A stretch of 64,000 nt of DNA from an uncultured Colwellia sp. GTDB taxonomy: Bacteria; Pseudomonadota; Gammaproteobacteria; Enterobacterales; Alteromonadaceae. The notes below the pieces were generated by a model, which was not told the origin of the DNA, did not search any database, and was given only the letters and a program-made list of their open reading frames with translations. Where the stretch lies: NCBI GenBank assembly GCA_913063325.1, contig CAJXYE010000010.1, forward strand, positions 36,308-100,307, given 5' to 3'. A program made the translations under genes and the position numbers. Below are positions 2,963 through 15,429 of this stretch, in pieces. Each line of letters begins with the position of its first letter. The first letter of the stretch is position 1.

Positions 2963-3240
2963 TAAGACAATGGATCTTCGACAAGTAACCTCGAAGATGA
3001 CGTTTGATGGGTTTCGGAGTAAACCGCATAAGTCGTCATTTCCTAGGTGTTTTGTCGGACGTAGCATGGATGCTACTTATTAGAGAATGCAGGATGCACA
3101 TTCTCCTGAGCATATTCTCCTGAATCCAGTTCACTAAGACAATGGATCTTCGACAAGTAAACTCGAAGATGACGTTTGCTGGGTTTCGGAGTAATCCGCA
3201 TAAGTCGTCATTCCCTAGGTGTTTCGTCGAGAATCCAGTT
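2963..3240. repeat. Mosaic of inverted REP-like units
   Basis: Two inverted copies of the GTCATCTTCGA unit are interleaved with two copies of GTCATTyCCTAGGTGTTT. One copy of the third repeat type (tagagaatgcaggatgcacattctcctg) also lies here. The same modules in the opposite order occur at 12130-12310. Confidence 0.85.
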
Positions 3241-3934: not shown

Positions 3935-4244
3935 ATACCTGCTACCATTCAAGATGCAGGTTTCAGAGAGCTTGAGCAATGTTAATTCAAGGCGCTGTGA
4001 TGAAAGAATGGTTATTCAGGAGAATGTGCTCCTGCATTCTCTAATAAGCTATATCCGTATAGCGTCATTGTAAGTCACAGCAACGATGAAGTAATGTTGC
4101 TCAAGCACTTCTTTGATGGGTTTTAAATGACTTTATACCGCGTTAAATAATCAAACCATAGAATGACTATGCTTTACTTATTTTACTTATCTAAAGCCAT
4201 TTTAATTCCCACTGAAATCCTGCACTTTGATTGGTAGCGGGTAT
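3935..4244. repeat. MITE-like element, copy A
   Basis: The ends are inverted repeats of about 30 bases (atacctgctaccattcaag against ggtagcgggtat inverted, plus a ctgcaggtttcag-like extension). The interior carries the REP-like unit ttcaggagaatgtgctcctg followed by cattctctaataag. No transposase is encoded. Related copies occur at 40558, 51498 and near the window end. The element fills most of the 610-base gap before the toxin-antitoxin pair. Confidence 0.75.
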
Positions 4245-11380: not shown

Positions 11381-11812
11381 ATGAACGATAATTTACTATT
11401 AGAGAAGCAGCTGTGTTTTCGAATTTATAGTTTAAATAAATTAATGTGCCGCCTCTATGCGCCAATTTTGAAAGAGTTAGCCCTAACCTACCCTCAATAT
11501 TTAGCTATGTTGGTATTGTGGCAGCACAAAAAGGGGATTTCGGTTAAAGAGCTAGGTCATCAACTTGATTTGGATTCAGGCACGCTATCGCCATTATTAA
11601 AACGGTTGGAAACTCAGGGCTTAGTTTCGAGAGTTCGCCAGTCTCAGGATGAACGTGTGGTTATGATTAAACTCACTCAAAAAGGAGTGAGTTTACGACA
11701 AGCCGCAGAGCATATTCCTAAAAAAATGTTTTCCGTATCGGGATTAACACCTGAGAAATTACAGGGTTTAACTCTGGAGCTAGATCAGCTTATTGCTCAT
11801 CTTAGTGATTAA
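11381..11812 (+). CDS. MarR-family organic-peroxide-sensing regulator (OhrR-like)
   Basis: The 143-residue protein is a winged-helix MarR protein very like OhrR. The redox Cys (residue 12, QLCFRIYS) is followed by TYPQYLAMLVLW, then the recognition region LDLDSGTLSPLLKRLETQGLVSRVR and the wing QDERVVMIKLT. Oxidation of the Cys by organic hydroperoxides releases DNA in known OhrR proteins. The usual partner is ohr; here it is a glutathione peroxidase, which suggests the same signal drives a different enzyme. Confidence 0.9.
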   Translation: MNDNLLLEKQLCFRIYSLNKLMCRLYAPILKELALTYPQYLAMLVLWQHKKGISVKELGHQLDLDSGTLSPLLKRLETQGLVSRVRQSQDERVVMIKLTQKGVSLRQAAEHIPKKMFSVSGLTPEKLQGLTLELDQLIAHLSD

Positions 11813-11865
11813 ACCAATTTAGGCTTATTAAAGTGCTGCGTCATTAAGGTGGAAAGTGAGTAAGG

Positions 11866-12310
11866 ATTCAGGAGAATGTGCATCCTGCATTCTCTAATAA
11901 GGTACGTCCTGTACCGTCTGCATTCTCTTCTAAGTAACATAAAATTAAGTTGTTGATTTGTAATTAGATAACAAAAATATAAATACCGTCATCTTCGAAG
12001 TCTCTGATCGAAGATCCATTGTATTTTAGAAACTGGATCTTCGATCAGAGACTTCGAAGATGACGAACAAAGCTTTGCTGTACTTGCGGATAAAAATGTT
12101 ACTGGTAGATGGTTGGGGCGCAGCGGCTGATTCTCTAATAAGTAGCATCCTGGATTCAGGAGAATGTGCGTCCTGCATTCTCTAATAAGTCGCATCCATG
12201 CTACGTCCGACAAAAGACCTCGGGAATGACGACTTCATTGTAAGCGTCATCTTCGAGTTTACTTGTCGAAGATCCATTGTCTTATAAACTGGATTCAGGA
12301 GAATGTGCTC
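11866..12310. repeat. Mosaic REP-like repeat block, left of the insertion sequence
   Basis: The order is: ggattcaggagaatgtgc unit, ctgcattctctaataagg unit, a segment with a 77-base hairpin, further ctctaataagtagcatcc units, GTCATTCCC and GTCATCTTCGA units. A final ggattcaggagaatgtgctc is then broken by the insertion sequence. Bases from about 11885 to 12153 are nearly identical to 13679-13993 on the other side. Confidence 0.85.
11988..12064. repeat. Perfect 31-bp inverted repeat, copy 1
   Basis: Two perfectly complementary 31-base arms (starting GTCATCTTCGAAGTC, ending GACTTCGAAGATGAC) flank a 15-base loop. No T-run follows, so it is not a simple terminator. An identical hairpin lies at 13815-13891. 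Confidence 0.9.
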
Positions 12311-12339
12311 AGGATAATTGCTTATATGGACTCCTCATA

Positions 12340-12520
12340 TTGTGCAATAACAATTTAAAAATATTAGATGCGTGCTTATATACGGACTCTTAGTGGGAAG
12401 CTATCCCGGTCACTTTGATGTATTCGCACCTTCATGCCTAATCTCCTGCACGACATTATAAATATGTTCAGAGCAATTTACAGGCTGTTGAAGGTTGGTC
12501 TAACCATTTTAAAGATCTTT
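12340..12520 (-). ncRNA. Candidate bridge/seek RNA of the IS1111-group element
   Basis: IS1111-group elements are known to encode their guide RNA downstream of the transposase gene. In the transcript sense this segment contains UGCAGGAG (complement of 12443-12450), identical to the 8 bases just left of the insertion point read in the same sense. About 14 bases later comes GUGC (complement of 12426-12429), complementary to the first bases right of the insertion. A GCAUCU (complement of 12366-12371) could pair with the element's own terminal AGATGT, with one wobble pair. Ends and fold are not determined; the match of the other donor guide is poor. Confidence 0.45.
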
Positions 12521-12550
12521 ATTGAACAATATTAAACGCTTTATAACTTT

Positions 12551-13588
12551 TTAAGCCGCAATCAATACGGGCTTGTAATCCGTGTTGTTTTTCAATAATG
12601 CATAAGCGGTTCGTGCTGTTTTATTGGCTAACGCCATCGATGCACAATTAACTCCTCTACGTTCTATTAAGGCTTTTAACCAACGTTCTTTTTCTGTTTT
12701 GGCGGGCCTATTTTTTAGTTTCGACACCACAGCTCTCGCCCCTAAGAAAATACAACTGCGTAATGGCTTATCGCATGAGCCTTTTCCTACCGACCCCAAT
12801 TTTACTTTACCGCCACTGCTATGCTGTTTTGGCGTAAGGCCGATACAAGCGGCGACTTGCCTGCCACTGTTGAAGTGCTCACCATTGCCTAGCTGTATTT
12901 TCAGCCTAACCGCAGTAATAGGCCCAACACTTTCAAGCTTCATTAATTTTTGGCAATCACTATCTTGTGCGGTTAATTGTATTAACTCATTATTTATTTC
13001 TTCAAAATCGTCTTCAAGACGAGAATAGAGTTCCCACATTTGAAGTAACCCTTTTCTCATCGGGAAAGTTAAATCATTTTCAGCATCTTCTAAAATTTCA
13101 GGTATCCGTTCTTTAAAGCTTTTAATACTTTTATTGATAACAAGGCCAAACTCTAGCAACAAGCCACGTACTTGATTTGATAGTTGTAGCTTCTGCTTAT
13201 CAATCAGGCTTCTCATCTTTTCAATAGATTGAAGCCCTTGTTGTTCGACAGATAAAATCCTAGCGGGCTTTATATTAGCTGCTCGACTTGCAACGGCAAT
13301 CGCTACGGCATCATTCGCATCGGTTTTTTGACCGGTTCTAAACGGTTTAACTTGTTTAGGGGGTATAACCATTACTTTATGGCCTAAAGACTGAGAAAAT
13401 CTTGCCCAATAATGAGCACCGCCACAACTTTCCATAGCAATAAGAGAAAGCTTTTGTTTAGCTAACCATTCTTTTAACTTGGCTCTATTCATCGCTTTAT
13501 TAACAATTATTTTTCCATGTGTGGTCATAATGCAAACTTGAAAAATATCTTTTGCTAAATCGATAGCAATTACGTTACATTGTTCCAT
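12551..13588 (-). CDS. IS110-family DEDD transposase (bridge recombinase type)
   Basis: The ORF track opens at 13684, but the ATG at 13588 (MEQCNVIAIDLAKDIFQ) follows AGGAG at 8 bases and gives the usual 345 residues. The N-terminal RuvC-like DEDD domain shows Asp in AIDLAKDIFQ, Glu in AMESCGG and Asp pairs in KTDANDAVAIA. A coiled-coil linker follows (about 130-210). The C-terminal Transposase_20 domain has LESVGPITAVRL and GLTPKQHSSGGK with the catalytic Ser. No frameshift or stop is present, so it should be active. Confidence 0.95.
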   Translation of the reverse strand: MEQCNVIAIDLAKDIFQVCIMTTHGKIIVNKAMNRAKLKEWLAKQKLSLIAMESCGGAHYWARFSQSLGHKVMVIPPKQVKPFRTGQKTDANDAVAIAVASRAANIKPARILSVEQQGLQSIEKMRSLIDKQKLQLSNQVRGLLLEFGLVINKSIKSFKERIPEILEDAENDLTFPMRKGLLQMWELYSRLEDDFEEINNELIQLTAQDSDCQKLMKLESVGPITAVRLKIQLGNGEHFNSGRQVAACIGLTPKQHSSGGKVKLGSVGKGSCDKPLRSCIFLGARAVVSKLKNRPAKTEKERWLKALIERRGVNCASMALANKTARTAYALLKNNTDYKPVLIAA

Positions 13589-13678
13589 TGTGTGGACTCC
13601 TGGTAAAAGTTGATTTGAGTGAATGCTTTTCACTTTATACCGTAAATCTCCCGTTAAGGGGAGGAGTCCATACATCTC

Positions 13679-14022
13679 CTGCATTATCTAATAAGGTACT
13701 TCCTGTACCGTCTGCATTATCTAATAAGGTACGTCCTTTACCGTCTGCATTCTCTTCTAAGTAACATAAAATTAAGTTGTTGATTTGTAATTAGATAACA
13801 AAAATATAAATACCGTCATCTTCGAAGTCTCTGATCGAAGATCCATTGTATTTTAGAAACTGGATCTTCGATCAGAGACTTCGAAGATGACGAACAAAGA
13901 TTTGCTGTACTTGCGGATAAAAATGTTACTGGTAGTTACTGGTAGATGGTTGGGGCGCAGCGGCTGATTCTCTAATAAGTAGCATCCATGCTACGACCGA
14001 TCGGACAACTCGGGAATGACAA
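13679..14022. repeat. Mosaic REP-like repeat block, right of the insertion sequence
   Basis: The block resumes the interrupted repeat (ctcctgcattatctaataagg). It then has one extra ctaataaggtacgtcc unit and about 240 bases almost identical to 11919-12150, and ends with GTCATTCCCGAG in inverse. Together with the left block it brackets the insertion sequence in direct repeats. Confidence 0.85.
13815..13891. repeat. Perfect 31-bp inverted repeat, copy 2
   Basis: This copy has the same arms and the same 15-base loop as the hairpin at 11988-12064, in the same orientation. Confidence 0.9.
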
Positions 14023-14046
14023 TAAAGCCGCTAGCTATCAGTAATC

Positions 14047-15429
14047 TTATGAAAATAGCGTGTTATGTAATTTTTCAACAACAGAGTTAGCATCACTTTC
14101 ATCAACTAAAAAGCATAAGTTGTTGGCACTTGCACCATGGCAAATTAAACGAATATTAATATCGTTTATGGTATCAAAAATAGTTTGGCCAATACCTTTA
14201 GCGCTCGTTAAACCATTGCCGATCACGGCGACAAGTGATAATCCATGCTCAACGCTTACTTCACAAAGTTGCTCTAACTCTGCAACAACCGTATTAGTAA
14301 TTACTGATTGCGTTGAACCACTTGGATTATCGAAGGTTAACGCAACACTAATTTCACTGGTGGTGATTAAATCAATACTCAATTCATGTTTAGCTAATAT
14401 GCCAAATACTTTCGCTAAAAAACCACTGGCATGTAACATAGCCGGGCTTTTAACCGTAACAAGGGTTTGTTCACGTCTTAAGGCAATAGAACGATATGTT
14501 GGGTTCGATTCAACTTTTTTCTTAATTTGGGTCCCACCCTTTTCTGGCTCTTTACTTGAACCAACAAAAACGGGGATATTACGTCGCATAGCAGGAATAA
14601 GCGTTGCTGGGTGTAATATTTTAGCGCCAAAGGTAGCCATCTCCGCAGCTTCGCCAAAACTAATTTCTTTGATCGCGCGTGCTTGATCAGTAATACGTGG
14701 ATCAGTAGTGAAAATGCCAACTACGTCAGTCCAAATTGATAAGTTATTACCGTTTACCGCCTCGGCAAGTAACGCTGCTGAATAATCAGAGCCGCCTCGC
14801 CCTAACGTTGTCGTATGGCCTTGACTGTCTTGACCAATAAAACCTTGAGTAACAATCACTTTATTAACAAGTTTTGGCAGTAAAAGCTGTTTGCTTTGCT
14901 CACTTAACTGATTAATATCTACTACGGCTTTGCCATGCAAGCTATTAGTTTTCATTACTTGTTGTACATTGAAGTATTCACCAGCAATATCAATAGACTG
15001 TAAAACTTGGGCAAATACACGTGAACTTAATTGCTCGCCAAAGGCAAGGATCGCATCCGTAGTTTTAGTGGTGAATTGTAATGATTGCGTCAAAGCATGT
15101 TGCGTTAATTCATCAAGTAAGCTGTCTATTTCTTGATTAAGCTCTGCTTCTACTTTACTCGATAAGTGCTGAGTAATGTTGAGCTGAATTGCTCGAATGC
15201 TTTCAACGATATCTTTCTGCTCATCCAACGAAATATTCTTTTGGCTTAAACGTACTAAATAATTAGTAACGCCAGCACTGGCTGAAACAACAATTAAGCG
15301 GTTACTGGTATCGTTTTTAATAATATGAGCGCATCGTAACATTGCTTGAAAATCGGCTACGCTGGTGCCGCCAAACTTAGCTACGGTTAATGATGGTGTT
15401 GATTGTACTGAGTTTTGTACTGAATTCAC
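14047..15429 (-). CDS. lysC: Aspartate kinase, lysine-sensitive monofunctional type
   Basis: The 460-residue protein has the aspartokinase catalytic domain (VAKFGGTSVADFQAM at residue 17; TLGRGGSDYSAALLAEA; IWTDVVGIFTTDPR) and two C-terminal ACT domains that bind the feedback inhibitor. There is no homoserine dehydrogenase domain. The length fits LysC (AK III). It makes aspartyl phosphate, the first step to lysine, threonine and methionine. The lysine riboswitch in its leader confirms lysine as the controlling end product. It stands alone. Confidence 0.95.
   Translation of the reverse strand: MNSVQNSVQSTPSLTVAKFGGTSVADFQAMLRCAHIIKNDTSNRLIVVSASAGVTNYLVRLSQKNISLDEQKDIVESIRAIQLNITQHLSSKVEAELNQEIDSLLDELTQHALTQSLQFTTKTTDAILAFGEQLSSRVFAQVLQSIDIAGEYFNVQQVMKTNSLHGKAVVDINQLSEQSKQLLLPKLVNKVIVTQGFIGQDSQGHTTTLGRGGSDYSAALLAEAVNGNNLSIWTDVVGIFTTDPRITDQARAIKEISFGEAAEMATFGAKILHPATLIPAMRRNIPVFVGSSKEPEKGGTQIKKKVESNPTYRSIALRREQTLVTVKSPAMLHASGFLAKVFGILAKHELSIDLITTSEISVALTFDNPSGSTQSVITNTVVAELEQLCEVSVEHGLSLVAVIGNGLTSAKGIGQTIFDTINDINIRLICHGASANNLCFLVDESDANSVVEKLHNTLFS

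What the first reader, a model, noticed from the sequence alone, without database searches (positions are those of the whole stretch)
12311..13678. Intact IS1111-group element inserted precisely inside a REP-like repeat
The insertion splits a repeat whose uninterrupted form is present near 4014 and in related form at 11868. Joining the flanks restores ggagaatgtgctcctgcatt. The element has 12-base perfect subterminal inverted repeats, a complete DEDD transposase and the long noncoding region on the 3' side. IS1111 relatives are known to target REP sequences, so this suggests that the local GTCAT/AGGAGAATG repeats act as landing sites in this genome.
Basis: partly seen in the sequence, partly recalled or inferred. 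Interest (0 to 1): 0.75.

Follow-up and report, generated by a model that had tools for sequence, protein, structure and literature searches.

The report
RNA-guided IS1111 element in hairpin repeat
A bacterial jumping gene in a Colwellia genome sits exactly inside a dispersed hairpin repeat because it appears to carry a small guide RNA whose sequence matches that repeat; this is a clear new example of a recently discovered, already known mechanism.

Summary
The stated ends are wrong. Relatives and uninterrupted copies place the element at 12322-13676. Joining those flanks gives AGGAGAATGTGCTCAGGATAATTGC|TCCTGCATTATC..., part of a 69-nt stretch identical to unoccupied repeats in two sister species.

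Targeting is supported, but not by the proposed copy count: the genome holds one full-length copy. Relatives from other species (95% and 88% identical transposase) sit at the same base of the same hairpin family. The 3' noncoding region carries two guide segments in a conserved RNA scaffold, one complementary to the right side of the target top strand, the other identical to its left side. Across 36 natural elements, guides match their own flanks far better than others' (0 of 20,000 permutations as good). A second, 44%-identical element in this genome sits in another hairpin module, with matching guides.

This is the known seekRNA/bridge RNA mechanism: a new member of a known kind. 'REP' in the strict, RAYT-linked sense is not supported. 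RNA expression and transposition are inferred, not shown.

The parts
12322..13676 (-). IS1111-type insertion sequence, 1355 bp (GATG...TAA; 12321-13675 equally possible because one G is shared)
   Evidence: Ends conserved in about 35 relatives; flank joining reproduces uninterrupted repeats over 69 nt
12551..13588 (-). transposase gene, 345 aa, PF01548 + PF02371, NF033542
   Evidence: the 377-aa ORF starts upstream, outside the element
13661..13672 (-). left subterminal inverted repeat TATGGACTCCTC
12325..12336 (-). right subterminal inverted repeat GAGGAGTCCATA
12372..12505 (-). predicted seekRNA/bridge RNA region: conserved scaffold with compensatory outer stem
   Evidence: limits approximate, inferred
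12469..12480 (-). guide 1 (TAAATTGCTCTG; AATTGCTC is complementary to target top strand GAGCAATT)
12437..12451 (-). guide 2 (GTGCAGGAGATTAGG; TGCAGGAG is identical to target top strand)
12417..12427 (-). putative donor guide (GCGAATACATC; ATACATC is complementary to the left end GATGTAT)
   Evidence: interpretation inferred
12372..12385 (-). putative donor guide (CCGTATATAAGCAC; resembles the right end CCATATAAGCA)
   Evidence: interpretation inferred
12342..12347 (-). putative outward -35 (TTGCAC), 17 nt before a TAAGAT that would form at the circle junction TAA|GAT
   Evidence: TTG at -26 or -27 from the right end in all 36 elements listed; promoter role inferred
12295..12321 (+). left part of the interrupted repeat (TCAGGAGAATGTGCTCAGGATAATTGC)
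   Evidence: identical to unoccupied sites L199 and L200 over 27 nt
13677..13718 (+). right part of the interrupted repeat (TCCTGCATTATCTAATAAGGTACTTCCTG...)
   Evidence: identical to unoccupied sites L199 and L200 over 42 nt
3083..3122 (-). unoccupied repeat with the same tandem layout (CAGGAGAATATGCTCAGGAGAATGTGCATCCTGCATTCTC)
4018..4040 (+). unoccupied single hairpin copy AGGAGAATGTGCTCCTGCATTCT
11870..11892 (+). unoccupied hairpin copy (GCATCC variant)
12158..12180 (+). unoccupied hairpin copy (GCGTCC variant)

Best explanation
This is an intact IS1111-group insertion sequence that inserts by RNA-guided recombination. Its 3' noncoding region encodes a seekRNA/bridge RNA. An internal loop of that RNA carries two short guides, one pairing with each strand of a dispersed hairpin repeat. 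The transposase-RNA complex therefore inserts the circular element at one fixed base in the hairpin loop, adding and removing no target bases. Shown here: ends, empty sites, guide-target matching across relatives, and the conserved RNA scaffold. Inferred: that the RNA is made and binds the transposase, that the intermediate is a circle, and that the element is still mobile.
For: Complete transposase with catalytic residues and a match to NCBI's RNA-guided transposase family. Ends conserved across relatives. Exact empty site, 69 nt, in two sister species. Relatives L014 and L015 sit at the same base of the same hairpin family with different stems (GACAAT/ATTGTC in L015; GATAAT/ATTATC here). Guides match their own target: guide 1 own mean 6.67 against 3.17 for other targets, guide 2 5.78 against 2.97, 0 of 20,000 permutations as high, also in 31 non-redundant targets. 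Close pairs change guide and target together: this element and L014 (95%), L036 and L002 (93%), L042 and L087 (97% over the part compared). Scaffold with compensatory base pairs, guides in the internal loop. Guide order as published for IS1111 (PMC11187229).
Against: Only one full-length copy in this genome, so no within-genome target series. L016 and L017 have right flanks that do not match guide 1; L016's flank is transposase-coding sequence and L017's right end resembles another element's, so both look rearranged. The permutation test does not correct for shared ancestry. No RNA or transposition data.
Confidence: 0.93

Rival explanations
1. The transposase recognises the hairpin's folded shape rather than its sequence; the guide match is incidental.
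For: The target is a hairpin, and several relatives also sit beside palindromes (L021, L023, L025).
Against: Guide segments track target sequence across 31 distinct targets, several of which show no obvious palindrome. Guide and target changed together between 95%-identical elements.
Confidence: 0.04
2. One reading: element 12311-13678 inserted into a single hairpin, the flanks restoring ggagaatgtgctcctgcatt.
For: The joined sequence AGGAGAATGTGCTCCTGCATTATC resembles a real single-hairpin form found elsewhere in the genome (L141).
Against: Conserved element ends fall at 12322 and 13676. The longer tandem site is found uninterrupted over 69 nt in two species and in a variant form in the same genome and window.
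Confidence: 0.02
3. The location is coincidence: the intergenic region is rich in repeats and any insertion there would hit one.
For: The gap between the flanking genes is 2.2 kb and packed with repeats; only one full-length copy is available in this genome.
Against: Same base of the same hairpin family in two other species; guide match; a random insertion would hit that base of any of about 43 copies in 4.9 Mb with probability near 1e-5.
Confidence: 0.01

Closest known systems
IS1111 group with seekRNA (ISEc11, ISPa11, ISKpn4, ISPst6; PMC11187229)
   Same: DEDD transposase of similar length, 12-bp subterminal inverted repeats, 3' noncoding region, top-strand-complementary guide 5' of the bottom-strand guide, no target duplication, natural guide switching.
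   Different: Different target (a Colwellia-genus hairpin repeat). The left terminal extension is 4 bp here, fixed by real empty sites, against the 7 (or 6) bp reported; the right one is 3 bp as reported.
REP-targeting IS elements (ISPa11, ISPpu9, ISPpu10, ISPsy8, ISRm22, ISRm19; PMC1525189)
   Same: Precise insertion into a dispersed extragenic palindrome.
   Different: The palindrome here is a different family and shows no link to a RAYT gene.
IS110 bridge RNA systems such as IS621 (PMC11208160)
   Same: Two guides in an internal loop, one for each target strand; putative second pair of guides for the element's own ends.
   Different: Guide RNA lies downstream of the gene, long subterminal inverted repeats, reversed guide order.

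Membership tests
IS1111 group | DEDD (RuvC-like) N-terminal domain plus Transposase_20 C-terminal domain, about 330-350 aa | tested here: met
   345 aa, PF01548 and PF02371 above cut-off, NF033542, conserved D10/E53/D90/D93 and SG motif
IS1111 group | Subterminal inverted repeats of about 11-13 bp | tested here: met
   12 bp perfect, conserved in relatives
IS1111 group | Long noncoding region downstream of the transposase gene | tested here: met
   229 bp downstream (12322-12550) against 88 bp upstream
IS1111 group | seekRNA guides in the downstream region: top-strand complement first, bottom-strand complement second | tested here: met
   Sequence match and covariation with targets; RNA itself not tested
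IS1111 group | No target-site duplication | tested here: met
   Joined flanks equal uninterrupted repeats over 69 nt
IS1111 group | Terminal extensions of 7 (or 6) bp left and 3 bp right (usual, not used to define the group) | tested here: inconclusive
   Right 3 bp agrees; left is 4 bp by the empty sites and by the second element L002. The count depends on how far the inverted repeat is taken to reach.
IS1111 group | Circular intermediate | not testable with these tools
   Only a possible junction promoter was seen
REP element (loose sense) | Short dispersed palindrome in many copies | tested here: met
   33 exact and 10 near copies of one form in the own genome, up to 94 exact in another genome of the genus
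REP element (strict sense) | Linked to a RAYT (Y1-type TnpA-REP) gene that mobilises it | tested here: inconclusive
   No PF01797 match in the own genome, which is 87.6% complete. No correlation across 39 genomes (Spearman 0.15, p 0.36), 5 genomes with at least 10 hairpins and no Y1 gene, none of four Y1 loci checked carries the hairpin.

The most novel reading that the evidence does not exclude
In Colwellia, different IS1111 lineages have repeatedly retuned their guide RNAs to follow different modules and stem variants of one dispersed composite hairpin repeat, so that repeats and guides evolve together and the repeats act as safe, renewable landing sites.
Probability: 0.35. Interest if true: 0.55.

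Novelty: new member of a known kind. Interest (0 to 1): 0.36.

Why it matters
It gives a natural series of guide and target pairs in one clade, including close relatives whose guides and insertion sites have changed together. It shows how an insertion sequence can settle in dispersed intergenic repeats, and that element ends called from one sequence alone can be off by a dozen bases unless an empty site is found.

Tried and rejected
Counting copies within the genome: only one full-length copy by protein or DNA, so no series. Rfam search: only miRNA- or sRNA-like chance matches, all below gathering score, on the long inverted repeats near 11987-12065 and 13814-13892. RAYT link: not supported. 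Orthologous empty site: nine sister genomes keep the MarR-like gene next to the aspartokinase gene with a gap of about 90-300 bp and no element, but most lack the repeats too, so they show only that the insertion is absent there; L185 has one intact hairpin copy. Generic promoter scan: no more promoter-like sites than in shuffles. L016, L017, L027, L031, L088 and L163 were not counted as clean target evidence because of damaged, rearranged or missing ends.

Full report
The window is part of a draft genome (126 contigs, 87.6% complete) whose closest named relatives for this element are Colwellia. At 12551-13588 on the minus strand lies a complete 345-aa transposase with DEDD_Tnp_IS110 and Transposase_20 domains, matching NCBI's 'IS110 family RNA-guided transposase' at E 6.6e-82. 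D10, E53, D90, D93 and the GLTPKQHSSGG motif are present. Twelve-base perfect inverted repeats lie at 12325-12336 and 13661-13672. The observation of an intact IS1111-type element is correct.

The ends need correction. In about 35 relatives the left end reads GATG-TATGGACTCC and the right end GGAGTCCATA followed by TAA, TAC or TAT. The corrected empty site, AGGAGAATGTGCTCAGGATAATTGC|TCCTGCATTATC, is a tandem of a half repeat and a full hairpin (GATAAT/ATTATC). It is found uninterrupted and identical over 69 nt in two other genomes of the genus, and with small differences at another place in this genome. The same tandem layout is unoccupied at 3083-3122 in the window itself. No target bases were gained or lost.

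The repeat is real. The own genome holds 33 exact and 10 near copies of one hairpin form, with none for the reversed control pattern; 30 of 39 genomes of the genus have exact copies, up to 94 in one. Calling it REP in the strict sense is not supported: no Y1-type transposase was found in the own genome, and repeat number does not correlate with Y1 genes across the genus.

Targeting could not be tested by copy number, because the genome has only one full-length copy. Comparison across species answers it. L014 (95% identical transposase) and L015 (88%) are inserted at the same base of the same hairpin family, L015 with stem GACAAT/ATTGTC instead of GATAAT/ATTATC. The chance that one random insertion lands at that base of any of about 43 copies in 4.9 Mb is of the order of 1e-5.

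The mechanism is visible in the noncoding region. An alignment of relatives shows a conserved scaffold with two variable segments at fixed positions. The first is complementary to the right flank of each element's own target. The second is identical to the left flank. In this element they are AATTGCTC (against GAGCAATT) and TGCAGGAG. Scored over 36 elements, guides match their own flanks much better than those of others (6.67 against 3.17 and 5.78 against 2.97; 0 of 20,000 permutations as high), and the result holds for 31 distinct targets. Shared ancestry is not corrected for, but close pairs point the same way. This element and L014 differ by AT/TA in the guide and by the matching bases in the target. 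L036 and the second element of this genome (L002), 93% identical, have guides TGATTCCC and TGATCTTC with targets GGGAATCC and GAAGATCC. L042 and L087, 97% identical over the part compared, changed both guides and both flanks. The RNA scaffold has an outer stem with many compensatory changes, and the two guides lie in its internal loop. Two further segments match the element's own ends and may be donor guides; this is inference. In the own genome the exact core AATTGCTCCTGCA occurs at one unoccupied place (L196), so the occupied site is one of two exact matches in the draft.

The second, 44%-identical element in this genome (L002) sits in the other hairpin module of the local composite repeat, GTCATCTTCGAGGTGATTTAATC|GAAGATCCA, again with matching guides. 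Two IS1111 lineages in one genome therefore use two modules of the same dispersed repeats.

Compared with what is known, this is the IS1111 seekRNA mechanism (PMC11187229; guide order and natural reprogramming as published) and follows the bridge RNA logic (PMC11208160). Specific insertion of IS elements into extragenic palindromes was reported in 2006 (PMC1525189). The left extension of 4 bp differs from the 7 (or 6) bp usually reported, a small variation fixed here by real empty sites. The finding is a well-supported new member of a known kind. RNA expression, transposase binding and present mobility were not tested.

Noticed in passing
window 11885-12108 and 13712-13935: A 224-nt composite repeat block is duplicated at 99% identity on the two sides of the element, each copy holding a perfect 32-nt inverted repeat; recent local amplification of the intergenic repeats seems likely.
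   Followed up: partly
window 13589-13601: A third, partial copy of the terminal inverted repeat (AGGAGTCCACACA) overlaps the likely ribosome-binding site just before the transposase start codon and is present in the close relatives; it could serve autoregulation.
   Followed up: no
L002 (G000:C73:20100-21125): A second IS1111 element of the same genome, 44% identical, is inserted in the GTCATCTTCGA...TCGAAGATCCA hairpin module with matching guides.
   Followed up: yes
L017 2501-3700: This relative looks like a hybrid: left part like the present element, right end and right flank like the L020 type; natural recombination between elements or a metagenome assembly error.
   Followed up: partly
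window 11812-14047: The gap between the MarR-like gene and the aspartokinase gene is about 2.2 kb here but only about 90-300 bp in nine sister genomes, so both repeats and element are lineage-specific additions.
   Followed up: partly
window 12342-12347: TTG at 26-27 nt from the right end is present in all 36 elements listed, placed so that joining the ends would form a promoter (TTGCAC-17-TAAGAT here, TTGACA-17-TAAGAT in L020).
   Followed up: partly
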